From: Arthrobacter cryoconiti
Lineage (GTDB): Bacteria; Actinomycetota; Actinomycetes; Actinomycetales; Micrococcaceae
DNA: 64,000 bases
Direction: 5' to 3'
NCBI RefSeq assembly: GCF_020905375.1
Contig: NZ_JAJJBU010000003.1
Span: 372,001 to 436,000, forward strand
The notes under the pieces were generated by a model. It did not search any database and was not told the DNA's origin. It saw only the letters and a program-made list of their open reading frames with translations. A program made the position numbers and the translations under genes. Position 1 is the first letter of the stretch, and every line of letters begins with the position of its first letter. Below, piece by piece: positions 2-27,072 of this stretch.

Positions 2-2557
2 GCCGATTACGTCAAGGTGCGCGATGGCCGCAAACCACGCCTGACGCAGGCCTCAAAGATCACGTTGCTAGGTGCCAGTGCCGATAACGTCATTGTTGGT
101 GACGGTGCGGGTATCAAGTACGCAGCCAACCTTTCCTTCTTTGGGCCCGGTTCCATAACCTTTGAAGTCACTGACGGTTCCGGGCCGGATGATCCTGATG
201 GCCTGAAGTCGACGTTGACAGTCATGACGCAGGTGGAGAAGGCGCCGGATGCTGCCATCAATACTCCGCCCACTTTCAGGGGCACTACGGTAGATGTGCC
301 GCAGGCGGAAACTGTCACCCAAAACCTTGCGCCACTGGCTACCGACCCTGACCCGGGCGAGCAAGAGAAGCTCAAGTTCGCCATGGCAGGGTCAGTCCCC
401 GCAGGATTCAAGGTGTCGCTGGAAGGCACCGTGCTCACGATCTCCCAAGCTAGTGGCACCAAAGTAGGTCAGCAGGCAACAGTCCAAGTCTCCGTCACTG
501 ATGGGAAGAACCCGGCGGTGACCACAGACGTTCTGCTGAACGCCATCTCGTCTTCCAAACCGCTGACTGTGGCCAACGACGACGTTGTTTCAGACGCGCA
601 CGCTGGCCGTGCTGAGGTGATCAAGGTGCTGACAAACGACGTCAACCCGTTCCCGGACACGCCTCTTAAAGTGGTGGGAACTTCCGTTGAAACCGGTAGC
701 GCCGGCATCAGCGTTTCCAACAATGCTGACTCTGTCACAGTGAACTCCGATGAAAACTACAAGGGCACAGTTGTGGTGCGGTACGTGGTGGAGGACAAGA
801 CAGCGGATCAAGCCCGCTACGCCAACGGCCGTATCCGCATCACCATCAAGGGCAAGCCTGATGCTCCGTCCAAACCGCAGGTAGTGGAGGAGAAGGACCA
901 GTCGGTGCTGTTGTCCTGGACTTCCCCGGCGGATAACGGCTCACCCATTAGCAAATACACCGTGGCCTGGGCTGGTGGTTCGCAGGACTGCGGCACCAAC
1001 ACGTGCACCATCACCGGTTTGAAGAACGCCTTACCGTACAAATTCACTGTCACTGCCACGAACGACGTCGGCACCTCCGCGGCGTCGGCGGCGTCGGCTA
1101 CCGCTACCCCTGACCGTATACCCGATGCTCCCAACGCACCGGTGGCGAAGTTTGGCGATAAGGAAGTGGCACTGACTTGGAACACTCCGGTGGGTGAGTT
1201 CTCCGCCGTGAAGTCCTACAACGTGCAGATCTCTCCCGCCCCGGCAGGACAAAATGGGCAAAAGACTGCCGTGGTGGGCAATAGCCTCACGTGGACCGGG
1301 CTGACCAATGGCACCGCCTATCAATTCCGTGTGCAGGCTGTGAACAACGCACCGAAACCCTCAGAGTGGGGTAAATATTCGGCCTCCGAAATCCCTGCCG
1401 GAATTCCGGCAGCTCCCGGTGCCCCCACGGTGACTGCAGCACCGGCGTCCGGCGGTAACACTCAAGTAACGGTCTCTTGGGGTGAGCCGTTCACTAACGG
1501 GGACGCTATCAGTGCCTATGTGCTGGAAGTTTCGGGTGGTGGGCAGGCTACCCGCACAATTACGACCTCCGCCACGACTCAAGCCGTCAGTATCAACAAC
1601 TCCACCGCCAGCTACCAGTTCCGCGTCAATGCCAAAAATAAGGCAGGCACCAGCGCTTACGGACCGCTGTCCGCTCCGCAACGGGCAGTGGGCAAAGTGG
1701 GGATGATGGCAGCACCAGGGCTAACAATTCAAAATACGTCCGGAGCCGGTGGCGCTGTTCAGGTCACGTATTCGCCATTGGGCGAGAACCAGCTTGATGG
1801 TTACGCTGCCAGTGAGGTTACGTACTGCGTGAAGCTCTCCTCCCAAGCTTCTGAGCAGTGCGGAGTGGCTTCTGGCACCACGCTGGCTAGTCCAAACAAT
1901 GTGGATGTTTTCGCCACGGTGCGAGCCATTGGTTCAGCGGCCGGAAAACAGTCAGGTGGTGACGCCTCCCCGGCGTCTACCACCGTGCACCCCTACGGTG
2001 TGCCCGGACAAGTGTCGGTGACAGGCAGCAAGGCTGCGCAGACTGTGCTGACGCTTAGCTGGACCTGGGTCAAGCCAAACAGCAACGGCGATATTATTCG
2101 CAGATATGAGGTTAGCCTCAACGGTGGCGGCTGGACCGACGCGGGTGACGTGTATTCGTATTCAACGCCCGCAAGCGCCTTCAGCGAAAGTAAGACACTA
2201 GCGGTTCGCGCCTGCAACGCCGGGGGCTGTGGTGTGCCTTCGCCTGCTGTTACTTCCACGGCCGGCGATCCGCCAACACCTCCCGTCACGCAATGGTCCA
2301 TGACGAACATCGACAATGACAGCTGCATGGACCCGGCCGGGGGCACAAACTGGAATCCGCCGAGAAGCTGTAATGGTAGCCACTGGCTGTATCGCGGACA
2401 GACCATGACGACCAGATGCTACATCAACAGGAACGGCTCCGTGCCAGGAAAATGGTATCTACAGATTGATGGCCCTAATGCGGCAAATAACGGCTTGTAT
2501 GCGCGCTGGGACGCTTTCAGTGATGCTCAGCGTGCGCAGCCGATCCCGCCGTGCTAA
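2..2557 (+). CDS. Giant Ig-like/fibronectin type III surface protein, copy 1 (5'-truncated by window)
   Basis: The reading frame is open from base 2, and its first codons match an internal segment of the two complete paralogues downstream (…DYVKVR.G..PR.TQ…). The gene therefore starts before the window and only the C-terminal ~850 residues are seen. Visible order: the end of the Ig-like array (FGPGSITFEVTDG; TNDVNPFPDTPLK), then five FN3-type repeats, the first with a C-x4-C pair (DCGTNTC), the second with the recurring NVQISPAP motif. A C-terminal cap follows with four cysteines, the last being the final residue (PIPPC). There is no LPXTG sorting signal. It is probably an extracellular rod-like protein anchored by an N-terminal membrane helix, judging from its paralogues. 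Family assignment is firm; function (adhesin, wall-associated sensor or secretion-linked fibre) is inference. Confidence 0.9.
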   Translation, partial: ADYVKVRDGRKPRLTQASKITLLGASADNVIVGDGAGIKYAANLSFFGPGSITFEVTDGSGPDDPDGLKSTLTVMTQVEKAPDAAINTPPTFRGTTVDVPQAETVTQNLAPLATDPDPGEQEKLKFAMAGSVPAGFKVSLEGTVLTISQASGTKVGQQATVQVSVTDGKNPAVTTDVLLNAISSSKPLTVANDDVVSDAHAGRAEVIKVLTNDVNPFPDTPLKVVGTSVETGSAGISVSNNADSVTVNSDENYKGTVVVRYVVEDKTADQARYANGRIRITIKGKPDAPSKPQVVEEKDQSVLLSWTSPADNGSPISKYTVAWAGGSQDCGTNTCTITGLKNALPYKFTVTATNDVGTSAASAASATATPDRIPDAPNAPVAKFGDKEVALTWNTPVGEFSAVKSYNVQISPAPAGQNGQKTAVVGNSLTWTGLTNGTAYQFRVQAVNNAPKPSEWGKYSASEIPAGIPAAPGAPTVTAAPASGGNTQVTVSWGEPFTNGDAISAYVLEVSGGGQATRTITTSATTQAVSINNSTASYQFRVNAKNKAGTSAYGPLSAPQRAVGKVGMMAAPGLTIQNTSGAGGAVQVTYSPLGENQLDGYAASEVTYCVKLSSQASEQCGVASGTTLASPNNVDVFATVRAIGSAAGKQSGGDASPASTTVHPYGVPGQVSVTGSKAAQTVLTLSWTWVKPNSNGDIIRRYEVSLNGGGWTDAGDVYSYSTPASAFSESKTLAVRACNAGGCGVPSPAVTSTAGDPPTPPVTQWSMTNIDNDSCMDPAGGTNWNPPRSCNGSHWLYRGQTMTTRCYINRNGSVPGKWYLQIDGPNAANNGLYARWDAFSDAQRAQPIPPC

Positions 2558-2767
2558 CGCGGGCAAGCTAATGGATGGAAGTGCGCGAGCGACATGAGCG
2601 TGGTCCCATGGGTTGGCCTCCCCATTGCATTTTTGAACGGTAATACGGCAGAATCACAGATGGGGAATAAGCCCAATCGCGCGCGGAATGCCGCCGGCTA
2701 ACGTTTTGAAGTGTAAGGAAAAGATGTATCACCGTGCCCGGCACGGCGACACAGCAAGGGTGTTTGA
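2558..2767 (+). other. Intergenic spacer between giant genes 1 and 2
   Basis: This 210-bp gap is the largest between the three paralogues. I see no hairpin with a T-run and no convincing -35/-10 pair. Its downstream end supplies the AAGGG ribosome site (2756-2760) for the next gene. A promoter could lie here, since the gap is longer than the 68 bp between copies 2 and 3, but I cannot point to one. Confidence 0.4.
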
Positions 2768-5700
2768 ATGGTTTTCTCAGCTATCGTCAACAGGTCTCAA
2801 CGCAGTAAGAAAGCAATGGGTATCACCAGCGCGGCCGTGCTGGCGTCAGCACTGGTGGCAGGCGCAGTCATTTACCCTGGCTTCAATACGGCGGACGTTG
2901 TCCTCAATGACGGAAGTGTCTGGGTCACCAACAGCACCGTGAACATGGTGGGCCATCTGAACGTCCAATCGAAAGTCCTCGACGGCGGATTCACCGCAAC
3001 TACCACCGGATTTGACGTGCTCCAGAACTCCGGAACCGTCTACATGGATAACGATTCCGGCTCTCTGTTGAACCAGGTGAACGTCCCAGCAATGGCGCTG
3101 ACGTCGGACACCACTTTGGCAGGGACCAAAAAAGTATCTCTGGGCAGTGAACTGACAGTCATCACAGACCCCGCTGCCGGCAAGGTTTGGGCACTGCCCG
3201 AATCAGCCGTTTCATCGTTTAACGACAAGACCACCAAGCCGGTCCTCTCGAAAGCGACTAACGCTCAGGCCGTCGTCGGACTTAATACCACCGGTGGAGT
3301 GAGTGACGTTTTTGTCCTAGATCCCCGCGGCGGCGAATTGACCACTTTGAAGGTCAGCGCTGATGGCAAGGTGGCAGATAGCTCCACGGCCAAGCTGGAC
3401 TCTCTGCCGGATTCGGGCAAGCTCCAGCTCAGTGTGGTCGGTGACCAGCCAGTCGTTTTAGACCCAAGCATCGGTACCTTGTTTTTGCCGGGCAATAAAA
3501 AGGTTGCTGTGCCCAACGGCAAAGACGGTAAATTACAGCAGCGCAGCACCGACGGAAAATCCGTTGCTGTTGAGACGGCCAAGGGCTTGGTCCTGCAGCC
3601 ACTCGGCGGTAGTCAGGCGACCATCGTCGATGCCGGAGCCACCGGGCGGGCCATAGCCCCGGTACTCCAGGATGGCTGTGTGCACGCAGCCTGGAACGGT
3701 TCCAACAAATACTTGCATCACTGCCCTGGCCAAGAGGACAAGGTGGTGGCTGTTCCCAAAGCTGGCGGTCAAAGCGAGCTCGTTTTCCGGCAGAACCGCG
3801 ACGTTGTGGTCCTCAATGACACCGCCGGTGGCGACGTGTGGCTGGTGAACCAGAATCTGCTGCTGGTAAATAATTGGCAGGACCTGACCACGGACCAGAA
3901 AAACGCGGATAACGCCGACAAAGAGTCGGCAGACCCGAACGTGGTCAACACCTTGCCGGATAGAACAAAACCGAACCGGCCGCCAGAGGCGGTAGCCGAT
4001 TCCTTTGGCGTACGGGCGGGTAGCACCACATTGCTACCCGTGCTTTATAACGACTCCGACCCGGACGGTGACGTTCTGACCATCAGCGAGAACGCGCCTT
4101 CCATCAAAGCCGGAACACTGCAGACCGTATACGGCGGAACCGGGCTACAACTAGTGGTGCCTGCCTCCGCTGCGCCCGGAACTGAAAGTTTCAGCTACAC
4201 GGCCAGTGACGGCCGTGGTGGCACGGCGGCTGCACCGGTAAGCGTGCGCGTGGTGGCTGAGAGTGAAAATTCTGCGCCCGTCTCCCTGCGGCCCACCACG
4301 GTGGTGGTGGCACAAGGTGCGTCCATTAGCCAAAATGTGCTCGCGGACATGATCGACCCCGACGGTGATGAAATCTACCTGGTGGGAGCCACCGCGGGAG
4401 ACGCAACGGGGCAGGTGAAGTTCACCCCCAACGGCGAACTGACATATATAGACAACGGCGAAGACAGCGGCCCGAAGACCGTCACGATCAAGGTCTCCGA
4501 CACACGCGCCATTACGGAAAAAACCATCCAGGTCAGTGTCAAGCCTGCCGGCGGGGTACCGCCAATAGCAAATGCCGACTACGTGCGCGTGGTGGCCGGG
4601 CAGAGCGCCGTGGTGTCACCACTGAAGAACGATCAGGACCCCTCCGGAGGTGAGTTACGCCTGGCCAGCGTGGATAAACCAGCCAATGGCGAGGTCTCCG
4701 CCATTGCCGACAACGGTACTTTCACTTTCACTTCCACTGCCACCGGCACCGTATACCTGCCCTACCAAGTAACCAACGGCCCGCAGAGCGCCACCGGCCT
4801 GATCCGAATTGACGTGCAGCCAGCCGTAGACGCGGCGCCCATCGCCGTCAAGGACACCGCAATGCTCCCCGTGGGTGGGACCACGCTGGTGGATGTACTG
4901 GGTAATGATTCTGATTTATCCGGCGGGGTGCTGGTGGTCAAATCCGTCAGCGTTCCCGCAGGATCAGGGTTGAGCGCTAACGTCCTGGACCACCACGTAG
5001 TCAAGCTCACTGATATCAGTGATCCAGGCCAGCCGGTGACCATCACTTACACCGTCTCCAATGGTAAAGGCACAGCGACGGGAACCGTCTCCGTGGTTCG
5101 GATCCCGGCTGAATCGACACTTCAGCCGCCCGTGGCCCGCCCGGACACCGTGAACGTCCGGGTAGGTGACGTGGTGCGCATCCCCGTACTGGCAAATGAC
5201 TATGATCCCAATGGTGATGTTCTCAAACACCCGGAAATCACCCAGCGCCCTGACGAAGCAACCGGGAAACTGTGGGTTGACCAAGACGCCCTGCGCTTTT
5301 TGGCTGGCCCCACAGCTGGCAGCGTCTCTGCCATCTATAAAGTCACCAATAACTCCGGCCAAGTAGATTCGGCAGCGGTGAGCATCAATGTCATTGCCGC
5401 GGACCCTGAGCACAACCTGCCGCCGGCGCCAAAGAATGTCACAGGCCGCGTGATCGCTGGTACGGCAACGCGTATCCAGATCCCACTCGATGGCATAGAC
5501 CCCGACGGTGATTCGGTTCAGTTGATAGGCATAGGGACCCCACCCAAGCTGGGTACAGCAGTGGCTGGTAACGGCTTCATCAGCTACACGGCAGCGGGAA
5601 ATTCTGCTGGCACCGATACGTTCACCTATAGGGTCAAGGATCGTCTGGGCGCCGAAGCCGTGGGCACAGTAGAGGTGGGCATTGCCAAGGCAGCCGCCGT

Positions 5701-8700
5701 CAACCATCCACCGGAGGCAGCTGACGACTTCATCTCCATGCGCCCGGGCCGACAAGTGGCCTTGGATGTGGTGCTCAACGACTCCGACCCTGACGGTGAC
5801 AAGCTCGCCGTGGTCAAGAACGGTTTTGCGGGCCCAGAGGAGATGGCACCGCGGGTCACCGATCTGGGCCGTGTAGTCGTCACCGCACCGCAGGCAGCGG
5901 GGACGGCAACGCTGGGCTATACCGTAGCTGACCCTTCGGGGGCGAGCGATCACGGCAACATTCGCATGACTGTCACCCCTGACGCCCCTCTGCGGGCGCC
6001 GATTGCCCGCGATGACACCGTCACGACCGAAGAAGCCTTGGGTAAGAACACAGTCAATGTTCCGGTGCTCAAAAATGACGAGGACCCGGACGGCGTAGCG
6101 GAGCAACTCAAAGTCACCTTGGCCCAGACAACGCCCACGGCATCCGTCAACCAGGACGGAACGCTGCAGATTGCGCTCACTGATGGACCTCAGATGGTGG
6201 CGTACACGGTGACTGACCAGGACAAGCTGGCATCCACCGCCATTGTGTGGGTTCCCGGACTCGGCGAGCAATATCCCGTGCTGTCCAAGACGGACATCAT
6301 CAAGGTCCAGGCGGGTTCCACGGCCACTCTGCGACTGAGTGATTACGTCAAAGTCCGTGCCGGGCACACTCCTCGGGTGACACAGGTGGATAAGATCTCT
6401 TTGATCGGTGCTCCCACCACCGGCTCACTCTCCGCAGACGGCAGTTCCATTCTGTACAAGTCCAACGAGGACTTTTACGGACCTGGCTCCATCACCTTTG
6501 AAGTAACCGACGGCACCAGCCCCGAGGACCCGCAGGGTCTCAAATCCACGCTGACGGTGATGACGGATGTTCTTCCCGCCCCGGCTAAGAACCTTGCCCC
6601 CAAGTTCATCGGAACGGCGTTGAACGTGGCCCAGGTGGAATCGGTTGAGTCCAACCTTGAGCTGCTGGCTAGCGATCCGGAGAAGGATTCGCTGAAGTTC
6701 TCGCTGACGGGGAAGTCTTCGGCAGGTCTGAAGACGGAGATCAACGGGGCAGTGCTCAAAGTGACGGCAGAGAAAAATGCTGTGCTGGGATCAACGCAAA
6801 CCGTGGACGTTCAAGCGAGCGATGGCCACAATCCGCCGGTAGATGCCCAGATCACCGTGACTGTGACCTCGTCCAACAAGCCGCTGGCTGTGGCGAATGA
6901 TGATTCCGTGCCGGACGCCCACGCTGGCCGGACGGAAAGCGTGCCCGTCCTCTCCAATGACGTCAATCCGTTCCCGGACACAGCGTTGAAGATCGCCGAC
7001 GCGAAACTTGTCACCGGTGCCTCCGGCACGAAAGTCGCCGTGGCCGGGGATAAAGTCAACGTCACGGCGCCCGAGGACTTCACCGGCAACGTGGTGGTCA
7101 GTTACACCTTGGAAGACAAGACAGGCGACCCCGCACGACGCGTGAATGGGCGGATCGTGATGAACGTCAAGGGCAAGCCCGGAGTACCCACTGCTCCGCG
7201 GGTTGAAGAGGTCAAGAGCAAGCAGGTCATGCTCAAGTGGTCCACGCCGGTGGACAACGGCTCGCCGATCACCGGATATACGGTCAAGAAGAGCGACGGC
7301 GGCACGCAGAACTGTGCCACCAACACCTGTTTGATCACGGGGCTGACGAATGCCAAGCCCTACACTTTCGTTGTGAGTGCCAAAAACGCTGTGGGCGAGT
7401 CCGCAGATTCACCGGCGTCGGCCAAGGCGACGCCGGACCAGCAGCCGGACACACCGGCTGCGCCCATGGTGGTGCGCGGAGATACGCAGCTCGATGTCAG
7501 TTGGGTTACTCCTGTGGGCGAGTACTCGCCCGTCTCCAGCTATAACGTCCAGATTTCCCCGGCACCCAAGGGACAGAACCCGCAAAAGACCGGTATCAAG
7601 GGCAACAAGGTGACGTGGACGGGGCTGACCAACGGTGTGGCCTACACTTTCCGGGTACAGGCGCTCAATGCTGCACCCAACCCGTCGAACTGGAGTCCGT
7701 ACGCGCCAGTACCGGTCAAGCCTGCCGGTAAGCCGTTCACCCCAGCGGCTCCAACTACTACGTTGGTGAGTCCTGCCGGTACCACAAACCAGGTCCGCGT
7801 TGATTGGAAAGAACCCAATCTCAACGGTGGCATACTCAAAAACTACACACTCACCACGTACTTGGACGGGCAGACGAAGGGGTCGGTATCGACTACGTCG
7901 CCGACCGCCACAGTGGATCTGCCCAATGGAACCGGAGCCTATACCTTCCGGGTGGTGGCGACCACCGAAGTGAGCTCCTCCGGAGCCAGTGCGCCCTCGG
8001 CGGGCCGGCGCTCCGTGAGCAAGCCGGGCCAGGTGCAGGGAGTCACCATTGCCGAGGCCAACACCGGCGCTGCCGGAGGCAAGGTCACTGTGAACTTCAC
8101 ACCGCTTTCAGGAACGGGGACCGGCGGTTCCACCGGAGGTGAGCTGGTGTACCACGCCAAGGTGAGCTCCAATGGAACCGATGTGGTGGTCACACCCGGC
8201 GCGAGCGTCCCGGCACCCAACGGAGACGCGACTACCGTGACCGTTTACGCGAAGTCTTCGGCGTTCGCCACAGCCGGGGACGCCTCTCCGAAGTCGAATT
8301 CAGTTACGCCCTTCGGTACTCCTGGCACTGCCGGGGTGGGGGGCAGCAACGGCGGTACCGGGAGCACATCCTTTAGCTACAGTTGGAGCTTCCCCGGAGG
8401 GGCAGTGGATGCAGCCAGCGTCCAGGTCAAGGTGGGCAATGGCGGGTGGGCTTCCAAGAGCAGTAACGGCAGCGCCAGCTATAACACCGGGGGCAACGAT
8501 AAAACGGTGACCGTCTCGGTACGCTCTGTGAACTCGGTAGGCACGTTTGGTCCCATTGCGTCCAAGAATCTCTCGAGTGGACCGCCCAAGCCGCCGGCAC
8601 CTACTGAGTGGGATATGCACGCCACTCCCACGCAGACCTGTTTGGAAACCGCCTCTGGCAACTCCGACCACTTCACCCCAGGTAACCCGGCGAATTGTTC

Positions 8701-8866
8701 CTCACAATGGTTGAAGGCGAACGTGAACGTCAAGGTCAACTGCTACCGCGACTGGGGCTCAAACCGCTGGTTACACATCAGCACGCCAGGCTACGGCGGC
8801 TATGGTTTCGCCAAGGCGTCGACCACGAGTTTGGAGAGCACTCCGTCCGGCATGCCGAAGTGCTAA
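2768..8866 (+). CDS. Giant Ig-like/cadherin-like and fibronectin type III surface protein, copy 2 (2032 aa)
   Basis: The ATG at 2768 has AAGGG seven bases upstream. Residues 1-45 hold a basic N-terminus (RSQRSKK) and one hydrophobic helix (about 20-40), probably an uncleaved signal anchor. Residues about 45-395 are repetitive beta-rich sequence (LNDGSVWVTN; VFVLDPRGGEL; GGDVWLVNQN) resembling a beta-propeller. From about 400 come tandem Ig/cadherin-like repeats: eight carry variants of NDSDPDGD, an acidic loop typical of calcium-binding cadherin-like repeats, and three more are divergent. Five FN3 repeats run from about 1467 to 1940, followed by a four-cysteine cap ending in MPKC. Such FN3 proteins accompany MoxR/DUF58/transglutaminase/kinase clusters, as here. 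No enzyme motif or sortase signal is seen. Surface location is well supported; the ligand is unknown. Confidence 0.93.
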   Translation: MVFSAIVNRSQRSKKAMGITSAAVLASALVAGAVIYPGFNTADVVLNDGSVWVTNSTVNMVGHLNVQSKVLDGGFTATTTGFDVLQNSGTVYMDNDSGSLLNQVNVPAMALTSDTTLAGTKKVSLGSELTVITDPAAGKVWALPESAVSSFNDKTTKPVLSKATNAQAVVGLNTTGGVSDVFVLDPRGGELTTLKVSADGKVADSSTAKLDSLPDSGKLQLSVVGDQPVVLDPSIGTLFLPGNKKVAVPNGKDGKLQQRSTDGKSVAVETAKGLVLQPLGGSQATIVDAGATGRAIAPVLQDGCVHAAWNGSNKYLHHCPGQEDKVVAVPKAGGQSELVFRQNRDVVVLNDTAGGDVWLVNQNLLLVNNWQDLTTDQKNADNADKESADPNVVNTLPDRTKPNRPPEAVADSFGVRAGSTTLLPVLYNDSDPDGDVLTISENAPSIKAGTLQTVYGGTGLQLVVPASAAPGTESFSYTASDGRGGTAAAPVSVRVVAESENSAPVSLRPTTVVVAQGASISQNVLADMIDPDGDEIYLVGATAGDATGQVKFTPNGELTYIDNGEDSGPKTVTIKVSDTRAITEKTIQVSVKPAGGVPPIANADYVRVVAGQSAVVSPLKNDQDPSGGELRLASVDKPANGEVSAIADNGTFTFTSTATGTVYLPYQVTNGPQSATGLIRIDVQPAVDAAPIAVKDTAMLPVGGTTLVDVLGNDSDLSGGVLVVKSVSVPAGSGLSANVLDHHVVKLTDISDPGQPVTITYTVSNGKGTATGTVSVVRIPAESTLQPPVARPDTVNVRVGDVVRIPVLANDYDPNGDVLKHPEITQRPDEATGKLWVDQDALRFLAGPTAGSVSAIYKVTNNSGQVDSAAVSINVIAADPEHNLPPAPKNVTGRVIAGTATRIQIPLDGIDPDGDSVQLIGIGTPPKLGTAVAGNGFISYTAAGNSAGTDTFTYRVKDRLGAEAVGTVEVGIAKAAAVNHPPEAADDFISMRPGRQVALDVVLNDSDPDGDKLAVVKNGFAGPEEMAPRVTDLGRVVVTAPQAAGTATLGYTVADPSGASDHGNIRMTVTPDAPLRAPIARDDTVTTEEALGKNTVNVPVLKNDEDPDGVAEQLKVTLAQTTPTASVNQDGTLQIALTDGPQMVAYTVTDQDKLASTAIVWVPGLGEQYPVLSKTDIIKVQAGSTATLRLSDYVKVRAGHTPRVTQVDKISLIGAPTTGSLSADGSSILYKSNEDFYGPGSITFEVTDGTSPEDPQGLKSTLTVMTDVLPAPAKNLAPKFIGTALNVAQVESVESNLELLASDPEKDSLKFSLTGKSSAGLKTEINGAVLKVTAEKNAVLGSTQTVDVQASDGHNPPVDAQITVTVTSSNKPLAVANDDSVPDAHAGRTESVPVLSNDVNPFPDTALKIADAKLVTGASGTKVAVAGDKVNVTAPEDFTGNVVVSYTLEDKTGDPARRVNGRIVMNVKGKPGVPTAPRVEEVKSKQVMLKWSTPVDNGSPITGYTVKKSDGGTQNCATNTCLITGLTNAKPYTFVVSAKNAVGESADSPASAKATPDQQPDTPAAPMVVRGDTQLDVSWVTPVGEYSPVSSYNVQISPAPKGQNPQKTGIKGNKVTWTGLTNGVAYTFRVQALNAAPNPSNWSPYAPVPVKPAGKPFTPAAPTTTLVSPAGTTNQVRVDWKEPNLNGGILKNYTLTTYLDGQTKGSVSTTSPTATVDLPNGTGAYTFRVVATTEVSSSGASAPSAGRRSVSKPGQVQGVTIAEANTGAAGGKVTVNFTPLSGTGTGGSTGGELVYHAKVSSNGTDVVVTPGASVPAPNGDATTVTVYAKSSAFATAGDASPKSNSVTPFGTPGTAGVGGSNGGTGSTSFSYSWSFPGGAVDAASVQVKVGNGGWASKSSNGSASYNTGGNDKTVTVSVRSVNSVGTFGPIASKNLSSGPPKPPAPTEWDMHATPTQTCLETASGNSDHFTPGNPANCSSQWLKANVNVKVNCYRDWGSNRWLHISTPGYGGYGFAKASTTSLESTPSGMPKC

Positions 8867-8934
8867 ACCATTTTGATTTGAGCGCCTTTTCCGTCACACT
8901 TCGAGTAATCTTCGCCGCTAAATAAGGATATTTG

Positions 8935-11900
8935 ATGTCAATAAGGTCGTTGTCGGCCAAAATCGTGCCCCGCAGGCGTTTTCTCGCTGCAACGGGCATG
9001 GTGGCGGCACTGGTGACGGTGGTTGCTGGTGCCATCATTTACCCGGGATTCGTCACGACAGATGTGGTTCTGAACGACGGAAGCGTCTGGGTCACCAACC
9101 GTTCAGCAAACATGGTGGGTCACCTCAACGCCCAGTCCAAGGTTCTTGATGGTGGTTTCACGGCTACCACCGAAAACTTCAACGTCCTTCAGCAAGCAGC
9201 CACGGTGTTCATGGACAATGACTCCGGCACACTGCTTAATCCAGTGGACGTCTCCACCATGGCCTTGGGCCAGGACACTGCCATGACGGGCACGAAAAAG
9301 ATCTCACTGGGCAGCACCCTCGTGGCGTTCGCCGATTCCGCTGCCGGGAAGGTGTGGCTAGTACCCACAGCCAGCGTCGCCTCGTTTGATCAAAAGAGCA
9401 GTAAACCCACTTTGACTGACATCCCCAACGCGGCCGCCGTCGTCGTTCCAGGTGCTGAAAACACCAGTACGGTGTTCGTTCTGAACCCACAAGCCGGAGA
9501 ACTGCTGACATTGACGGTGGGAGCGGACGCGCAGGTGAGCACCCAGTCAAAGGCAACCATTGCGGGGCTGCCAAAGGTTGGGAACCTACAGCTGACGGCC
9601 GTGGGGGGCCGGGCAGCAGTGCTGGACCCGGAGTCAGGGACCCTGTTTTTGCCCAACGGCAAGACATCACATGTTGACAATGCCAAAGGGTCCTTGATCC
9701 AGCAGCCCAGTGCTTCCGGCGACGCCGTAGCCGTGGAAACTGCCACGGGACTCCTACTCCAGCCGCTCGACGGCGGCCAAGGAGAACTGGCCTCCTTGTC
9801 TGGAACCGGTACGCCCATTGCGCCGGTGCAACAGCGAGGCTGCGTTCATGCGGCATGGACCGGGGTCAACAAGTATCTCTTCTATTGCCCCGGAGCTGAC
9901 TCGAAGCCCACACCCATCCCCAAGGCGGGCGCGCAGTCACGATTGGTGTTTCGTCAAAATCGGGACGTGGTGGTGCTCAATGACATGACCGGCGGCGACG
10001 TCTGGCTGATCAATCAAAACATGCAACTGGTCAATAACTGGGATGACATCAAGGCGGATCTGACCAAGGCGGATGACCCCAACAAAGACTCCACCGACCC
10101 CAATGTGGTGAACACTTTGCCGGATAGGACAAAACCTAACCGCCCGCCAGTGGCGGTGGCGGACACTTTTGGGGTGCGGGCCGGCGTCACCACGGTGCTG
10201 CCCATCCTCTTCAACGATTCTGACCCTGACGGGGACGTCTTGACTGCCCATCCGGCTACCGAGAAGTTGGGAATCGGAGAATTGCAGTCCATCTATGGGG
10301 GCACCGGTTTGCAAGTTGTGGTCCCTGCCGGCACCCCTGCAAAGACCGAAACCTTTAGTTACACCGCCGACGACGGTCGGGGCGGCACCGCCACCGCGCC
10401 GGTTAGCGTGCGAGTGGTGCCGGATAGCGAAAATTCGCCTCCCGTCTCGCTGCGTCCCACTTCCATGGTGGTGGTACAGGGACAATCGATCGCTCAAAAT
10501 GTCCTGGCTGATATGACGGACCCCGACGGCGACAGTATTTTCTTGGTTGGGGCTAAAGCAGGTGACGACTCGGCAGAGGTGAAGTTCACTCCGGACGGCG
10601 AACTGACGTACCTCGACAACGGTCAGAGCATTGGCGCCAAAACCGTCACGGTGTCTGTCTCCGACAATAGGGCGGTGACGGAAAAGAAGATATCGGTGAA
10701 TATTAAGCCTGGGGGAGTGCCGCCGGTGGCCAATGCCGACCACGTTCGAGTGGTGGTGGGCCAAACTGCTGTTGTTGCTCCGCTAAAAAATGATCAGGAT
10801 CCCGGTGGCGGCGAGCTTCGCCTGGCAAGCGTCGACAAACCCAACTTGGGCACGGCTTCACCGATTGCAGATAACGGAACTTTCACCTTCACCTCAGGCA
10901 CAGCGGGAGTGGCGTACCTGAACTACCAGGTGACAAATGGCCCGCAAAGCTCCACGGGGTTGATCCGGATCGACGTGGTGGCCGCGGATGAAGCGCTGGC
11001 CCCGGTAGCCGTGAAAGACACCGCCATGATGCCTACAGGCGGCACAGTGCTGGTGGATGTACTGGGCAATGACAGTGATCCTGCTGGTGGCATTCTGGTG
11101 GTGAAGGGAGTGGACGTCCCGGCGAACGCGGGTATTTCTGTCACTGTTCTGGACCACAAAATAGTCAAAATCACCGACCTCCGTAGCAACGGTGTGCCCT
11201 TGACGATCAATTACACGGTCGCCAATGGTTACGGCACCGCTGTGGGTAGCATCGCCGTGGTCCAAATTCCGGCACCCACCACCCTGGCGCCCCCGGTGGC
11301 CAAGGCGGACGTCGCCACGGTGCGCGTGGGCGACGTCGTTCGCATTCCGGTGCTGGCCAACGATTCGGACCCCAATGGGGATCTTCTTAAGCATCCAGAG
11401 ATCACCCAGAGCCCGGACAGCTCCGTCGGTAAATTATGGGTGGATGAAGACTCCCTGCGCTTTTTAGCCGGGACGACTGCCGGAACGTTCTCCGCTATCT
11501 ACAAAATCACAAACTCTTCCGGACAATCCGATTCGGCCGCAGTGAGCATCCACGTGCTGGCGTCCGACCCGCAACGGAACCTTCCCCCGGCACCGAAAAA
11601 TGTGGAGGGCCGGGTGCTGGCAGGATCAAGTACACGTATCCAAATCCCGCTTGATGGTATTGACCCTGACGGTGACTCAGTGCAGTTGATGGGCGTAGAC
11701 ACGGCCCCGCAATTGGGGACTGCAATTGCTGGCAACGGCTTTATCACCTACACGGCTGCCGGCAACTCTGCCGGCACGGACTCGTTCACTTACAAGGTCA
11801 AGGACAGCTTGGGTGCGGAAGCGGTGGGAAACATCCAAGTTGGAGTGGCACCAGTAGATCGCGTCAACCATCCACCCAAAACAGAAGATGACTTCATTAC

Positions 11901-14900
11901 CATCCGACCCGGGCGCCAGGTGGCACTGGACGTCCTACTCAACGATGCTGACCCTGACGGGGACATACTAGCCCTACAAAAGGACGGCTTTTCCGACCCC
12001 GCCGAAATGAAACCATCGATCACCAAACAGGGCCGGGTGCTTCTGCGCGCACCTACGACTCCTGGCATCAGCACCCTGGGCTACACAGTGTCCGACCCCT
12101 CTGGAGCAACGGCGAAGGGCACCGTCCACGTCACTGTCACCGCGGATGCGCCTCTCCGTGCACCCATCGCTCGCGATGACAGCGTTTCGGCTGCGGAAGC
12201 GCTGGGTAAGAACACTGTGGATGTGCCTGTACTGAAAAACGATGAAGATCCTGACGGTGTCGCAGACGCCCTGAAAGTCACTCTCACCCGCCCCACAGAG
12301 AGCGCCAGCGTGCTGGGCGACGGTCTGATCCGAGTGAACTTGACGGCGGCCCCCCAAATGATCCCGTACACGGTTACTGATCAAGACAAGCTCAGCGCCA
12401 CCGCCATCATTTGGGTCCCGGGAACTGACCAGCAATACCCCGTTTTGAAAAAGTCCGAACCCATCAAACTAGTGGCAGGAACCTCCGCCACATTGAAACT
12501 CAACGACTACGTCAAGGTCAGGGATGGGCATACCCCGCGGATCACGCAGGCGGACAAGGTAAAGCTCATAGGCGCCCCGTCGGAGAAATCAATTACGGCC
12601 GACGGCGGCGGCATCACTTACGCGGCCAACAAAGAATTCTATGGTCCAGGCTCGATCACCTTTGAGGTCACAGACGGTACGGGTCCAGATGACCCGGCGG
12701 GGCTCAAATCCACCCTGACAGTCATGACGGAGGTGACACCTGCTCCCGCCACCAACCTGCCTCCAACGGTTACCGGCACCCAGCTTGAAGTTGCGCAATT
12801 GGAAACGGCCACCTTGGACCTGTCAAAGTTGGCGAAGGATCCCGAAAACGATGCCCTGACGTTCAAGCTCTCAGGTGCCAAGCCCGAACAGGTCACGGCC
12901 GAGGTCAAGGGCTCGCAGCTGAGCGTGAAGAGCAGCAATGACGCGGTTTTGGGTGCAGTGTACGAGCTCGGCTTTGAGGTCTCCGACGGTAAGAGCAGCC
13001 CCGTCAAGTCCACCGTGGCATTGCGTATTACGTCCTCCACAAAACCGCTGGCGGTTGCCAATGAGGACGTTGTCCCCGACGCGCAAGCCGGCCGCAAGGA
13101 AACTGTCGACGTGTTGGCCAATGACACCAATCCGTTCCCCGACACGCCCCTGAAATTGGTGGACGTCAAACTTGTCACCGGGGCCTCTGGCACCACTGTG
13201 GAAAAACTCGCTGACAAAGTGGTGGTGGGAGCGCCTGAGAGCTTCACCGGCAATGTGGTGGTCTCCTACACAGTGGAAGACAAAACGGGGGATCATGGCC
13301 GCTGGGTCGATGGCCGCATCACGTTGAATGTGAAGGGAAAACCTGCCGTGCCACCGGCGCCTCGAGTCCAGGAAATCCAGAGCAAAGCGGTGATGCTGCA
13401 GTGGGGGACACCCGTGGACAATGGCTCACCGCTGACCGGCTATACGGTGTTGAAGAGCGACGGCGGCAGCCAGGACTGTGCGAGCAACACGTGCATGATC
13501 ACCGGACTGACGAACGCAGTAGCCTACACCTTCACCGTCAGCGCCAAGAACGCAGTGGGCAGTTCCGCATACTCCCGGGCCTCTGCCCCTGCAACACCGG
13601 ATGCTTCACCGGCGACTCCGGCTCCACCCACCGTAAAGCGTGGAGATAATGAACTGACATTGGGGTGGGTGACGCCGGTGGGTGAGTACTCGGCGGTGAA
13701 GAGCTACAACGTGCAAATTTCTCCCGCCCCGCCCGGACAGAACCCGCAAAAAAGTGCTGTCACGGGTAACTCTTTGACGTGGACCGGGCTCCGCAACGGC
13801 ACGGAGTACACCTTCCGGGTGCAGGCGGTAAATAATGCCCCGGAGCCATCAGCATGGAGCCAATACTCCCAAGCTGGGAAGCCCGCTGGTAAGCCGCTAA
13901 CTCCCGGAGCCCCCACGCTGTCTGTGGTGAGCACAGTGGGCGCTACCAATCAGGTCAAGCTCGATTGGGTGCAGCCGGACCTCAACGGTGGCGTCCTGAA
14001 AAACTATTCATTGACCAAGTATCTGGATGGAGTTTCCCAAGGGGTCACTACTACCACAATGCCCACAGCCACCGTTTCCCTGCCCAATGGCACCGGCAGT
14101 TATACCTTCGCCGTGGCGGTTTCCACGGAAGTCGATATCTCCGATCTGAGCCCGCGTTCCAATGCCCGGCGTTCAGTTAGCGAGCCGGGAACTGTCACCG
14201 GGCTGGGCATCGCGCCTGCCAACACGGGTGCCGCCGGTGGGGCGTTCACCGTGAACTTTGCCCCTCCCAGCGGTGCCGCGTTGGGCGGTTCCACGCCGGG
14301 CGAACTGAGCTACTGGGCCCAAGTCGGTGGGCGCGCGCCTGAGCGGGTAGTCCCCGGCGGAACCGTTGCCGCCACCAACGGTCAGAGCGTATCGGTTCAG
14401 GTCTATGTCACCTCTAGCGCCACCACTGAACAAGGCAAGAGCGTCACGTCCAACGCAGCCGCTGCCTACGGTATAGCTGGCACTCCTGGGATCACGGCCA
14501 CTAATGGCGGGCAAGGGGACACCAGCATGCGCTATTCGTGGTCGGCTCCGGGCGCCAACACAGACTCCACGGCCGTCCGCATTGACGAAGGTGGAGGCTT
14601 TGGTGGCTGGATCACTGCCAAGAGTGGAAACGGTCAAGTGAATCTGGGCACGGCGAATACCGCGCGGACCATCAAGATTCAATCGAAGAATTCAAAGGGT
14701 GATTTAGGCCAAGTCTCGGAGGCTACAGGATCCAGCGGACCGCCTGTTCCGTTCACCGTCCGCCCGGATCCGGGAGCGGCGAAGAACTCCTGCACTGTTC
14801 CCAGGAGCGGGGGCGCCTACTACTTTGATGGCAGCGTTTCCCCGGCAACCTGCAACGGTACGGTGAACAATTCCGATAATCCGGGCGGACAGTGGCTCAG

Positions 14901-15048
14901 CTATGGCGACGGTGCCGTCACGGTTGATTCCTGTAGTCCAGTGTGGAATACCTCTGGCAACTGGTACCGGATCAGCAGTGGTCGGCTTGCCGGCAATTAC
15001 GTCCGCCCGCCCACCGTCAATACTGTCACCGGGACACCGCCATGTTGA
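8935..15048 (+). CDS. Giant Ig-like/cadherin-like and fibronectin type III surface protein, copy 3 (2037 aa)
   Basis: I start at ATG 8935, which has TAAGGA six bases upstream; the TTG just before it (8932) is less likely. The layout matches copy 2 almost module for module: N-terminal helix (after PRRRFLAA), propeller-like head with the same motifs (YPGF, DVVLNDGSVWVTN, VGHLN.QSKVLDGGF), about eleven Ig/cadherin-like repeats, five FN3 repeats and a cap with four cysteines ending in TPPC. The head and shaft are closely similar to copy 2. The last ~300 residues differ strongly, keeping only the cysteines and an SH3-like WYRIS…YVRP pattern. The gene ends 115 bp before the MoxR operon on the same strand and probably belongs to the same system. 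Confidence 0.93.
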   Translation: MSIRSLSAKIVPRRRFLAATGMVAALVTVVAGAIIYPGFVTTDVVLNDGSVWVTNRSANMVGHLNAQSKVLDGGFTATTENFNVLQQAATVFMDNDSGTLLNPVDVSTMALGQDTAMTGTKKISLGSTLVAFADSAAGKVWLVPTASVASFDQKSSKPTLTDIPNAAAVVVPGAENTSTVFVLNPQAGELLTLTVGADAQVSTQSKATIAGLPKVGNLQLTAVGGRAAVLDPESGTLFLPNGKTSHVDNAKGSLIQQPSASGDAVAVETATGLLLQPLDGGQGELASLSGTGTPIAPVQQRGCVHAAWTGVNKYLFYCPGADSKPTPIPKAGAQSRLVFRQNRDVVVLNDMTGGDVWLINQNMQLVNNWDDIKADLTKADDPNKDSTDPNVVNTLPDRTKPNRPPVAVADTFGVRAGVTTVLPILFNDSDPDGDVLTAHPATEKLGIGELQSIYGGTGLQVVVPAGTPAKTETFSYTADDGRGGTATAPVSVRVVPDSENSPPVSLRPTSMVVVQGQSIAQNVLADMTDPDGDSIFLVGAKAGDDSAEVKFTPDGELTYLDNGQSIGAKTVTVSVSDNRAVTEKKISVNIKPGGVPPVANADHVRVVVGQTAVVAPLKNDQDPGGGELRLASVDKPNLGTASPIADNGTFTFTSGTAGVAYLNYQVTNGPQSSTGLIRIDVVAADEALAPVAVKDTAMMPTGGTVLVDVLGNDSDPAGGILVVKGVDVPANAGISVTVLDHKIVKITDLRSNGVPLTINYTVANGYGTAVGSIAVVQIPAPTTLAPPVAKADVATVRVGDVVRIPVLANDSDPNGDLLKHPEITQSPDSSVGKLWVDEDSLRFLAGTTAGTFSAIYKITNSSGQSDSAAVSIHVLASDPQRNLPPAPKNVEGRVLAGSSTRIQIPLDGIDPDGDSVQLMGVDTAPQLGTAIAGNGFITYTAAGNSAGTDSFTYKVKDSLGAEAVGNIQVGVAPVDRVNHPPKTEDDFITIRPGRQVALDVLLNDADPDGDILALQKDGFSDPAEMKPSITKQGRVLLRAPTTPGISTLGYTVSDPSGATAKGTVHVTVTADAPLRAPIARDDSVSAAEALGKNTVDVPVLKNDEDPDGVADALKVTLTRPTESASVLGDGLIRVNLTAAPQMIPYTVTDQDKLSATAIIWVPGTDQQYPVLKKSEPIKLVAGTSATLKLNDYVKVRDGHTPRITQADKVKLIGAPSEKSITADGGGITYAANKEFYGPGSITFEVTDGTGPDDPAGLKSTLTVMTEVTPAPATNLPPTVTGTQLEVAQLETATLDLSKLAKDPENDALTFKLSGAKPEQVTAEVKGSQLSVKSSNDAVLGAVYELGFEVSDGKSSPVKSTVALRITSSTKPLAVANEDVVPDAQAGRKETVDVLANDTNPFPDTPLKLVDVKLVTGASGTTVEKLADKVVVGAPESFTGNVVVSYTVEDKTGDHGRWVDGRITLNVKGKPAVPPAPRVQEIQSKAVMLQWGTPVDNGSPLTGYTVLKSDGGSQDCASNTCMITGLTNAVAYTFTVSAKNAVGSSAYSRASAPATPDASPATPAPPTVKRGDNELTLGWVTPVGEYSAVKSYNVQISPAPPGQNPQKSAVTGNSLTWTGLRNGTEYTFRVQAVNNAPEPSAWSQYSQAGKPAGKPLTPGAPTLSVVSTVGATNQVKLDWVQPDLNGGVLKNYSLTKYLDGVSQGVTTTTMPTATVSLPNGTGSYTFAVAVSTEVDISDLSPRSNARRSVSEPGTVTGLGIAPANTGAAGGAFTVNFAPPSGAALGGSTPGELSYWAQVGGRAPERVVPGGTVAATNGQSVSVQVYVTSSATTEQGKSVTSNAAAAYGIAGTPGITATNGGQGDTSMRYSWSAPGANTDSTAVRIDEGGGFGGWITAKSGNGQVNLGTANTARTIKIQSKNSKGDLGQVSEATGSSGPPVPFTVRPDPGAAKNSCTVPRSGGAYYFDGSVSPATCNGTVNNSDNPGGQWLSYGDGAVTVDSCSPVWNTSGNWYRISSGRLAGNYVRPPTVNTVTGTPPC

Positions 15049-15163: not shown

Positions 15164-16135
15164 ATGTCCATGACGCCGGAACAGGCTACTTGGTTCGCCG
15201 GAACCTTTGAGAAGCTGGTTGCTAACGTAGGGCAGGCCGTCCTGGGTAAGTCCCATGTAGTCAGCCTCACGCTTGCTGCCATGTTGGCGGAAGGACACGT
15301 CCTGTTCGAGGATGCCCCGGGGACAGGCAAGACCATGTTGGCGCGGGCTCTGTCAGCCACAGTCAAAGGTACTCACTCGCGTATCCAGTTCACACCCGAT
15401 CTGCTTCCCTCCGACGTCACGGGTGTGACCATTTATGACCAAAAGACGCAGGTCTTTGAGTTTCACAAGGGACCCATCTTCGCGACGATTGTCCTCGCAG
15501 ATGAAATCAACCGTGCCTCGCCGAAGACGCAGTCAGCACTTCTGGAAGTCATGGAAGAATCTCGTGTCACGGTCGATGGCACCACCTATGAGGCTGGCCG
15601 GCCGTTCATGGTACTAGCCACCCAAAACCCCATCGAACAGGCCGGTACATACCGCCTGCCCGAAGCCCAGTTGGACCGCTTCTTGATCAAGACCTCCATT
15701 GGCTATCCGGACCACGCCTCCACTGTTCAACTGCTCTCCGGTTCCAGCCAGCGTGACCGCACCTCCACCATGACGGCAATCATCACGCCAGCGGCTGTGG
15801 CAGAAATGGCTGATCTTGCCTCGACCGCACACACCGACGCCGCGGTGTTGGAATACGTTTCACGTCTGTGCGAAGAAACCCGCAACGCACCCGAAACCCG
15901 CCTGGGAGTTTCGGTCCGTGGCGCCATTGCCATGGTGCGCCTAGCTAAGGTGTGGGCTGCCTCCAAGGGCCGGCATTACGTGCTCCCTGATGACATCAAG
16001 GAGCTGGCACCTTACGTGTGGACGCACCGTTTCGTCATGGATCCCGAAGCTGAATTTGCCGGAGCTACACCTGAGGTGGTGCTGGCCCGTGTTCTGGCCG
16101 AAGTAGCTGCCCCGCAGCAGCGCGCTGGAGTCTGA
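15164..16135 (+). CDS. MoxR-family AAA+ ATPase
   Basis: This 323-residue protein is a MoxR ATPase, a chaperone-like AAA+ that remodels partner proteins. Walker A is EDAPGTGKT (about residues 49-57) and Walker B is VLADEIN with D113-E114. The sensor region TQNPIEQ and the MoxR-typical PEAQLDRFL are intact, with an AAA lid domain at the C-terminus. An AAAGAGG ribosome site precedes the ATG. It is the first gene of the coupled operon that runs to the FtsK/EssC-like gene. It lies seven bases before a DUF58 gene, its usual partner. Its substrate here is unknown. Confidence 0.95.
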   Translation: MSMTPEQATWFAGTFEKLVANVGQAVLGKSHVVSLTLAAMLAEGHVLFEDAPGTGKTMLARALSATVKGTHSRIQFTPDLLPSDVTGVTIYDQKTQVFEFHKGPIFATIVLADEINRASPKTQSALLEVMEESRVTVDGTTYEAGRPFMVLATQNPIEQAGTYRLPEAQLDRFLIKTSIGYPDHASTVQLLSGSSQRDRTSTMTAIITPAAVAEMADLASTAHTDAAVLEYVSRLCEETRNAPETRLGVSVRGAIAMVRLAKVWAASKGRHYVLPDDIKELAPYVWTHRFVMDPEAEFAGATPEVVLARVLAEVAAPQQRAGV

Positions 16136-16142: not shown

Positions 16143-17474
16143 ATGAGTCTCAAATCCAGCGCAGGAAAGGCCCGTGCAGTCCTGGCGCGGCCATTCCACC
16201 GCAACGGTGCCCCCACGGCGCTGCACCCCACCTCGCTATGGGCGGAGGCGGTCAAAGTGGTCCGGCTTTACCTCGCTCCCGTGTGGGACAAGTTCGCGAG
16301 CTGGTCGGGTCGCTATGTCAGGCCAGTGGTGTCCAGTGTCAGTGCCCTGGGCGCTGTGGTGATTGGCGCCGTCGTACTGCTGTGGATCCTTGGGGCTAGC
16401 TTTGGCTGGCAGGAAGCCAAGGTTGCCGCGCTGTTGGGATCGTTGCTGGTGCTGATCGCTATCGCTTTCATCGTGGGATCGTCCATGTACGCGGTGACGC
16501 TGGATTTGGCGCGCACACGGGTTGCCGTCGGGGATAACGCGGTGGGCAGTATTGCCGTCACCAACACTTCCCCCCGCCCTGTGTTACCCGCAGCTCTTGA
16601 ATTGCCCGTGGGGCGTGCGACGGCGCTGTTTCACCTACCGAGGATGAAGCCGGGTGCCGTGCACGAGGACCTCTTCACCATTCCGACCACCCGACGGGCA
16701 GTAATTACCGTGGGACCCGTCCGCTCTGTTCGTGCCGATCCGTTGTATCTGCTGCGCCGTCAGGTTCTGTGGACAGAGCCCACCGAGCTGTTTGTGCACC
16801 CGCGCACCACCGCTCTGGACGGACCCGCGGCGGGCTTCCTGAAAGACTTGGAGGGCTTGCCCACCAAGGAACTTTCCAATGCTGATATTGCCTTCCATGC
16901 TTTGCGAGACTATGTCCCAGGGGATGACCGCCGTCATATTCACTGGAAAACAACTGCCCGCACGGGAAAGATGATGGTCCGCCAATTCGAGGAAACCCGA
17001 CGGGCTCACATGGCAGTGGCCCTGTCGGTGAACACAGACGAATATGAACGCGACGAGGACTTTGAATTGGCCATCAGCGCCGCCGCCTCCCTGGGCCGGC
17101 AAGCCATCAAGGAAGCGCGTGAGCTCAGCGTAGTCACCCAGTCCGGGCCCATCCGCTGCGAGACCGGCAAAAACATGCTCGATGACATGACGAGGCTGGC
17201 CGGTTCAACCCGTCGAGGGACGGCTTTGCAACTGGCGCGTTCTTTGGCGGACAGCGTCCCCAACGCCTCCGTGGTGTTCTTTGTAGTGGGCTCGAAGGTG
17301 ACGCCATCACAACTGCGCAGCGCCGCCGCGTCCGTGCCACCAGGTGTGCGTTCCTTCGCCATCCGCTGCTATAGCGGAGCGCAGTCCGCCCGTGCCAATA
17401 TTGCCGATCTGACCGTACTGACCCTGGGTGACCTAGGGGACCTGGCAGCTGTCCTGAGGAAGGCGATTGCATGA
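16143..17474 (+). CDS. DUF58 domain membrane protein
   Basis: A 443-residue protein with two membrane helices near residues 60-120, then a beta-rich segment and the DUF58 signature DYVPGDDRRHIHWKTTAR (about residues 258-275). DUF58 proteins often have a von Willebrand A-like fold and pair genetically with MoxR ATPases and transglutaminase-like proteins, as here. GAGG before the ATG is the ribosome site. The stop overlaps the next start by four bases (ATGA), implying translational coupling. The biochemical role of DUF58 is not established. Confidence 0.93.
   Translation: MSLKSSAGKARAVLARPFHRNGAPTALHPTSLWAEAVKVVRLYLAPVWDKFASWSGRYVRPVVSSVSALGAVVIGAVVLLWILGASFGWQEAKVAALLGSLLVLIAIAFIVGSSMYAVTLDLARTRVAVGDNAVGSIAVTNTSPRPVLPAALELPVGRATALFHLPRMKPGAVHEDLFTIPTTRRAVITVGPVRSVRADPLYLLRRQVLWTEPTELFVHPRTTALDGPAAGFLKDLEGLPTKELSNADIAFHALRDYVPGDDRRHIHWKTTARTGKMMVRQFEETRRAHMAVALSVNTDEYERDEDFELAISAAASLGRQAIKEARELSVVTQSGPIRCETGKNMLDDMTRLAGSTRRGTALQLARSLADSVPNASVVFFVVGSKVTPSQLRSAAASVPPGVRSFAIRCYSGAQSARANIADLTVLTLGDLGDLAAVLRKAIA

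Positions 17475-25194: not shown

Positions 25195-25198
<4 letters not shown>
23033..25198 (+). CDS. FHA-domain protein with acidic linker and zinc ribbon
   Basis: I choose ATG 23033, which has GGAG nine bases upstream; a farther upstream in-frame start would lie deeper inside the phosphatase gene. The 721-residue protein has a globular N-terminal domain of unknown type (about 1-165), a long acidic Ser/Gly/Glu-rich linker (about 180-570) with three GTTGGS-type repeats, a zinc ribbon near 580 (CPNDHA…CSQCGAT) and a C-terminal FHA domain (LIIGRQP; DISRSHVEV; LKATNGT). It is probably a phosphothreonine-binding adaptor of the kinase/phosphatase pair. The N-terminal domain matches nothing I recognise. 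Confidence 0.88.
24044..24097 (+). repeat. In-frame 18-bp tandem repeat, three units
   Basis: Three consecutive 18-bp units (TCTGGCACCACCGGCGGT, the last one diverging) encode SGTTGG repeats in the acidic linker of the FHA protein. The linker has no folded-domain pattern here. Confidence 0.85.

Positions 25199-27068
<1,870 letters not shown>

Positions 27069-27072
<4 letters not shown>

What the first reader, a model, noticed from the sequence alone, without database searches (positions are those of the whole stretch)
2..15048. Three tandem giant paralogues with a conserved shaft and divergent tips
Copies 2 and 3 match module for module through head, Ig-like array and first FN3 repeats, as does copy 1 where visible. 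The last FN3 repeats and the cap share little beyond spacing and cysteines. This is the pattern expected when duplicated surface proteins keep a common scaffold and diversify the ligand-facing end.
Basis: partly seen in the sequence, partly recalled or inferred. Interest (0 to 1): 0.75.

Follow-up and report, generated by a model that had tools for sequence, protein, structure and literature searches.

The report
Tandem surface proteins with swappable tips
A soil Arthrobacter carries three side-by-side genes for giant surface proteins that share one stalk but end in different tips, and comparison with relatives shows the tips are exchanged as ready-made modules rather than slowly mutated, which suggests a bacterial system for holding and reshuffling a set of different binding ends.

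Summary
The three tandem genes (2047, 2032 and 2038 aa) align module for module. Copies 2 and 3 are mostly 64-78% identical along most of the shaft and 31-34% at the end; copy 1 drops from ~1690 aa to 22-34%.
The explanation needs changing. Across 19 Arthrobacter genomes (38 copies) the last ~90 residues fall into 8 discrete classes. Cap identity between classes stays at 22-29% however similar the shafts are (40% to >90%); within a class it is 54-82%. Cap class conflicts with the shaft tree (AU p<1e-38), no genome carries one class twice, and within-class dN/dS is about 0.1-0.2. So the tips differ by module exchange, not by gradual divergence or positive selection. Junctions recur at the start of FN3-4 and in the Pro-rich linker before the cap. 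In a second genus, two tandem copies are identical over 5,328 nt (2 mismatches), then differ completely.
The locus is an Arthrobacter version of the bifidobacterial PFNA operon. The N-terminal anchor puts the cap outermost. What the caps bind is unknown. The closest evolutionary analogue is Rhs C-terminal displacement, but without orphan tips or immunity genes. New variant of a known kind.

The parts
2..2557 (+). Copy 1, C-terminal 851 aa only (full gene is G000:C23:368414-374557, 2047 aa)
860..1468 (+). Copy 1: conserved FN3-1/FN3-2
   Evidence: Pfam fn3 at P0001 aa 287-365; alignment; boundaries approximate
1469..2254 (+). Copy 1: variable FN3-3 to FN3-5
   Evidence: identity to copies 2/3 falls to 21-34%; domain limits by alignment to the copy 2 model, approximate
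2255..2554 (+). Copy 1: Cys cap, class 6 (shared with 6 copies in other Arthrobacter genomes)
2768..8866 (+). Copy 2, 2032 aa
2816..2872 (+). Copy 2: N-terminal membrane anchor (aa 17-35)
   Evidence: most hydrophobic 19-mer of the protein, preceded by a basic stretch
2888..3922 (+). Copy 2: head, predicted beta-propeller
   Evidence: AlphaFold model pLDDT 71, closest PDB folds BamB, YVTN propeller, virginiamycin B lyase
3965..7162 (+). Copy 2: array of about 10 Ig-like (Big_9) domains, the conserved shaft
7169..7777 (+). Copy 2: conserved FN3-1/FN3-2
7793..8047 (+). Copy 2: FN3-3 (intermediate conservation)
8048..8587 (+). Copy 2: FN3-4/FN3-5, an exchangeable module
   Evidence: 79% identical to A. 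silviterrae copy 1, which carries another cap
8588..8863 (+). Copy 2: Pro-rich linker and Cys cap, class 1
8932..15048 (+). Copy 3, 2038 aa (probable start ATG at 8935)
9055..10092 (+). Copy 3: beta-propeller-like head
   Evidence: alignment A7
10129..13326 (+). Copy 3: Ig-like shaft
13333..13941 (+). Copy 3: conserved FN3-1/FN3-2
14215..14754 (+). Copy 3: FN3-4/FN3-5
14755..15045 (+). Copy 3: Cys cap, class 2
15164..16135 (+). MoxR AAA ATPase
   Evidence: AAA_3, AAA_lid_2
16143..17474 (+). DUF58 protein
17471..20068 (+). Membrane transglutaminase-like protein (TgpA_N, Transglut_core)
20069..22012 (+). RDD/FHA protein
22009..23040 (+). PP2C phosphatase
23018..25198 (+). FHA protein
25195..27072 (+). 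Serine/threonine protein kinase
27833..32269 (+). FHA-FtsK/EssC-like ATPase, probably the end of the operon

Best explanation
Each gene encodes a protein anchored in the membrane by its N-terminus: a beta-propeller head, an Ig stalk and FN3 domains that carry a small Cys-containing cap at the outermost end. Shown by sequence: the gene has three recombining parts, namely head+Ig+FN3-1 to 3 (shaft), FN3-4/5, and cap. Homologous recombination keeps the shafts alike (sometimes near-identical by gene conversion or recent duplication) and brings different FN3-4/5 and cap modules onto them. Caps come from a limited set of homologous but strongly diverged classes. The tandem copies of a genome always carry different classes in the genomes examined, so each cell has a non-redundant set of tips. 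Inferred: the cap with its neighbouring FN3s is the recognition end, each class meets a different ligand, and selection (frequency-dependent or niche-dependent) maintains class diversity. The downstream MoxR/DUF58/transglutaminase/kinase genes mature or control this layer, as in the PFNA operon.
For: Cap identity between classes is flat (22-29%) across all shaft-identity bins, against 54-82% within classes. Cap classes 1, 2, 3 and 6 are each a supported clade on the cap tree, yet on the shaft tree cap class needs 13 changes (minimum 7), with at least 5, 4 and 3 forced by starred branches for classes 3, 1 and 6; AU tests reject one shaft clade for each (p<1e-38). Window copy 2 is closest to A. 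silviterrae copy 1 along head, Ig, FN3-1/2 and FN3-4/5 (76-80%), then 27% in the cap. G205 copies: 2 mismatches in 5,328 nt, then ~50%; partial conversions in G021 and G091. Junctions cluster at aa ~1755-1800 and ~1945; FN3-4/5 can be exchanged while the cap stays (G031_1/G140_2, G041_2/G068_2, G015_1/G017_1). No class is repeated in any of 15 independent multi-copy Arthrobacter genomes (shuffle P=0.006) or 26 others. Within-class dN/dS in caps is about 0.07-0.18. Topology. Equivalent tip region needed for ligand binding in B. longum: PMC10688814, PMC12607495.
Against: No ligand, expression or localisation is known for any Micrococcaceae member. The cap model is of only moderate confidence (pLDDT ~50-80), so its fold is not established. 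The non-redundancy P value ignores shared ancestry, and in other genera position 1 and position 2 partly draw on separate cap pools, so part of the non-redundancy is inherited. Exchange has not been seen within a species, because only one genome per species was available. Whether tips move or shafts are overwritten cannot be told apart in most cases.
Confidence: 0.62

Rival explanations
1. Duplicated genes whose distal ends diverged by fast point mutation (positive selection or relaxed constraint).
For: dN is higher at the tips than in the shaft between window paralogues (0.57-1.05 against 0.23-0.42); in orthologue pairs FN3-3 to 5 often evolve somewhat faster than the shaft.
Against: Between-class cap identity does not depend on shaft divergence. 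Within-class cap dN/dS is ~0.1-0.2 and identity stays high. Breaks are abrupt at domain boundaries. Shaft and cap trees conflict.
Confidence: 0.06
2. The tips are exchanged because they are exposed targets: swapping lets cells escape phages, predatory bacteria or protists, with no dedicated ligand for each class.
For: Discrete classes, non-redundancy, whole-operon absence in 4 of 23 genus genomes and a predicted surface location all fit frequency-dependent selection by an enemy.
Against: Strong within-class conservation, including five invariant Cys/Trp positions, argues for a retained function. No phage record encodes a relative of the copy 3 tip.
Confidence: 0.17
3. The caps are toxin tips of a polymorphic delivery system (Rhs/CDI-like), with class exchange as toxin exchange.
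For: Same evolutionary pattern: conserved long shaft, exchangeable C-terminus.
Against: Gaps of 65-210 bp between copies leave no room for immunity genes; no orphan tips in 23 genus genomes; the caps are homologous small Cys-containing domains with no Pfam or PHROG match; the protein has an N-terminal anchor.
Confidence: 0.04
4. The caps bind the cell's own wall or each other, and the copies are subfunctionalised wall-building scaffolds worked on by the operon's transglutaminase and kinase.
For: MoxR-DUF58-transglutaminase genes adjoin; single-copy relatives without such a Cys cap exist in Microbacteriaceae, so a basic cap-independent role is likely; Promicromonospora keeps position-specific tips.
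Against: Repeated exchange among classes is not expected of fixed structural partners in one wall type.
Confidence: 0.11

Closest known systems
PFNA operon of Bifidobacterium (pkb2, fn3, aaa-atp/MoxR, duf58, tgm, plus prpC and fha); FN3 protein of B. longum GT15
   Same: Same gene set with fn3 directly followed by MoxR-DUF58-transglutaminase; a ~1994-aa membrane-bound FN3 protein whose FN3 pair (aa 1494-1671) and C-terminal region (1672-1994) lie where FN3-1/2 and the variable tip lie here (aa ~1474-1660 and ~1676-2032).
   Different: Described there as a single fn3 gene, kinase listed first in the operon, diversity attributed to episodic positive selection (PMC6803598). Here three fn3 genes in tandem, kinase downstream, an added FHA-FtsK/EssC-like gene, and diversity by module exchange. 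The bacterium belongs to an environmental group, so cytokine binding is not the expected role.
Rhs C-terminal displacement (Jackson et al. 2009, PMC2935791)
   Same: Core and variable C-terminus are evolutionarily decoupled; diversity arises from new core/tip combinations by homologous recombination, not rapid mutation.
   Different: Unrelated protein family; no orphan tip arrays; no linked immunity genes; tips are one homologous Cys-cap family, and FN3-4/5 is a second exchangeable module.
Tandem-95 / Big_9 repeat surface proteins (NF012211, PF17963)
   Same: Shaft repeats score above the curated cut-offs.
   Different: The family is defined by the repeat alone and says nothing about head, cap, tandem arrays or exchange.
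MoxR-vWA-beta-propeller ternary conflict systems (PMC7159879)
   Same: MoxR next to a DUF58 protein (DUF58 proteins are often vWA-like; own knowledge), and a predicted beta-propeller head.
   Different: The propeller here is part of a giant extracytoplasmic protein; MoxR scores better to general AAA_3 than to bpMoxR; DUF58 and Ig-like proteins are not mentioned in that paper.

Membership tests
PFNA operon / FN3 protein | fn3, MoxR ATPase, DUF58 and transglutaminase genes adjacent and in that order on one strand | tested here: met
   Pfam; coordinates
PFNA operon / FN3 protein | Serine/threonine kinase (pkb2) in the cluster | tested here: met
   Pkinase at 25195-27072, but downstream of tgm, whereas the operon is listed kinase-first in bifidobacteria
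PFNA operon / FN3 protein | ~2000-aa protein with one TM, two FN3 domains at ~1490-1670 and a ~320-aa C-terminal region | tested here: met
   2032-2047 aa, TM, fn3; bifidobacterial coordinates from PMC10688814
PFNA operon / FN3 protein | Direct sequence homology of head and shaft with the bifidobacterial FN3 protein | not tested
   No named Bifidobacterium genome was among the retrieved loci
PFNA operon / FN3 protein | Cytokine binding or adhesion | not testable with these tools
   needs experiments
Polymorphic toxin (Rhs/CDI-like) | Conserved core with exchangeable C-terminal tips | tested here: met
Polymorphic toxin (Rhs/CDI-like) | Immunity gene directly downstream of each tip | tested here: not met
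   65-210 bp gaps in the window and mostly short gaps in relatives
Polymorphic toxin (Rhs/CDI-like) | Orphan tip cassettes | tested here: not met
   Every cap match in 23 genomes is the end of a giant gene or of its frame-broken C-terminal part
Polymorphic toxin (Rhs/CDI-like) | Recognisable toxin domain in the tip | tested here: not met
   No significant Pfam or PHROG match to the caps tested; no convincing PDB sequence match
LPXTG-anchored MSCRAMM-type adhesin | C-terminal sortase motif and TM | tested here: not met
   No LPxT[GA] in the last 60 aa of any of the 38 copies; no C-terminal hydrophobic segment in the three window copies
tandem-95 repeat protein | NF012211 score at or above cut-off 90 | tested here: met
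   133-171 bits

The most novel reading that the evidence does not exclude
A combinatorial surface-recognition system of Micrococcaceae: a tandem array of giant anchored receptors whose shafts are kept alike by gene conversion while two distal modules (FN3-4/5 and cap) are traded independently from a shared class pool, with selection against carrying the same cap twice, so that each strain holds its own non-overlapping set of ligand specificities linked to an STPK/MoxR/transglutaminase signalling operon.
Probability: 0.4. Interest if true: 0.75.

Novelty: new variant of a known kind. Interest (0 to 1): 0.6.

Why it matters
PFNA/FN3 diversity has been read as host-driven positive selection in bifidobacteria. 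Here the same kind of operon, in environmental bacteria, diversifies by module exchange on a shared shaft. It is a natural series of interchangeable tips on near-identical stalks (G205: one stalk, two tips), which makes tip specificity, display geometry and the selection for class diversity directly testable. It also extends C-terminal displacement, known from toxins, to anchored Ig/FN3 surface proteins.

Tried and rejected
Toxin-tip model: no immunity gene, orphan tip or toxin domain. Positive selection at tips: within-class dN/dS low; paralogue dS is near saturation, so dN/dS between window copies is not interpretable. Phage-borne copies of the copy 3 tip: none. Known fold for the cap: profile against PDB sequences gave nothing convincing, and the Foldseek matches of the tip model that I could see come from FN3 arrays. 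My first guess that the cap is SH3b-like from its 'WY..G..G.WV' pattern is not supported by any search. Rfam: no hit in the window. Sigma-70 and terminator scans over the array were at or below shuffle level. The PADLOC matches of the kinase look like generic kinase scores.
Full report
What is there. The window lies in contig C23 of a 3.6-Mb genome. Loci of the same genus that carry names belong to Arthrobacter (A. silviterrae and relatives). Three giant genes stand in tandem. Copy 1 runs off the window and is complete in the genome (2047 aa); copies 2 and 3 have 2032 and 2038 aa. Gaps are 210, 65 and 115 bp, with MoxR next. All copies have an N-terminal anchor, a beta-propeller-like head (model, fold matches), about ten Ig-like domains and FN3 domains (three more FN3-like domains in the model of the copy 2 tip), and a Cys-containing cap without a Pfam family.

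Check of the observation. Sliding identity confirms an alike shaft and an unlike end. The fall is earlier for copy 1 (from about aa 1690) than between copies 2 and 3 (from about aa 1780). Two further dips (head aa 100-300, last Ig) recur across the genus. The caps keep the same four cysteines and one Trp, and profile comparison shows that the caps of classes 1, 2, 3 and 6 are homologous (probability 92-99%).

Relatives. Nineteen of 23 genomes of the genus carry 1-3 copies; the other four lack both the head and a close relative of the operon's FHA-FtsK gene. In the family, 102 of 245 genomes carry the head, many of them with two or three copies. Microbacteriaceae loci mostly carry one copy without such a cap, and several Promicromonospora loci carry three tandem copies whose C-termini are conserved by position.

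Tips are classes, not gradients. In 38 Arthrobacter copies the last 100 aa form eight clusters. Pairs of different class average 22-29% cap identity whether their Ig shafts are 40% or over 90% identical; pairs of the same class average 54-82%. Gradual divergence would give a slope, which is not seen. Close same-class pairs have cap dN/dS of about 0.07-0.18, so the caps are constrained.

Tips and shafts are decoupled. Each of the classes 1, 2, 3 and 6 is a clade on the cap tree, but the shaft tree needs 13 class changes, and forcing the shafts of class 1, 3 or 6 together is rejected (p<1e-38). For the window itself: copy 2 is closest to A. silviterrae copy 1 in the head, Ig shaft, FN3-1/2 and FN3-4/5 (76-80%), yet its cap matches that gene at only 27% and instead matches class 1 of other species. 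Gain and loss of whole paralogues cannot give this; recombination inside the gene is needed.

How it happens. In G205, a genome of another genus on a 3.8-Mb contig, the two tandem copies differ at 2 of the first 5,328 nt, with about 45 nt of upstream identity, and then break abruptly at aa 1776 into different FN3-4/5 and cap. G021 has about 450 nt identical at the 5' end, and G091 a 97-100% stretch across the head. Breaks in other pairs fall at aa ~1755-1800 or in the Pro-rich linker at ~1945. The FN3-4/5 block can be replaced while the cap stays. There are therefore at least two exchangeable modules. No orphan caps were found in the genus, so donors are most likely other copies in the cell or other strains.

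Non-redundancy. No class occurs twice in any of 15 independent multi-copy Arthrobacter genomes (3.9 expected by shuffling, P=0.006) or in 26 further genomes of other genera. Shared ancestry and positional pools explain part of this, so I treat selection against repeats as likely, not shown.

Function. The operon downstream has the PFNA gene set. In B. longum the equivalent FN3-pair-plus-C-terminus fragment binds TNF-alpha and needs both parts (PMC10688814), and fragments from different species differ in cytokine binding (PMC12607495). For environmental Arthrobacter I take from this only that this end of the protein can recognise ligands. A recognition or adhesion role with class-specific ligands is my leading reading; enemy escape and wall scaffolding are the main rivals.

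Limits. One genome per species, no experiments, moderate confidence for the cap model, no direct alignment to a Bifidobacterium FN3 protein, and four of the 38 copies carry a frame break of unknown reality.

Noticed in passing
window 27833-32269: FHA-FtsK protein resembling EssC/EccC but below the NCBIfam cut-offs, conserved at 79-88% in the 18 other operon-bearing genomes of the genus and without a close relative in the four that lack the array; its role with the surface proteins is unexplained.
   Followed up: partly
window 27003-27836: 277-aa ORF between kinase and FHA-FtsK with no Pfam or NCBIfam match.
   Followed up: no
L054 (reverse strand 9421-11346): HNH/DUF222-like ORF (by eye) inserted between copies 2 and 3 of G016; a DUF222-HNH gene also lies upstream of the window array (L009:7457-9598).
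   Followed up: partly
L047:8840-10145: Cyclase-like ORF (by eye) and a repeated stretch between the two copies of G009.
   Followed up: no
G001_2, G003_1, G007_1, G014_1 (L041, L044, L045, L052): One frame break in each of four copies; pseudogene, phase variation or sequencing error not distinguished.
   Followed up: no
copy 2 aa ~100-300 and ~1320-1400: Secondary variable zones in the propeller head and last Ig domain, seen in the whole genus.
   Followed up: partly
L140, L153, L155: Copies elsewhere on the chromosome in genus g10; those in L140 and L153 share a distinct cap type that resembles the odd G009 copy 2 by eye.
   Followed up: partly
L069-L071 (Promicromonospora): Three tandem copies with position-specific C-termini conserved between species, a contrast to the exchange in Micrococcaceae.
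   Followed up: partly
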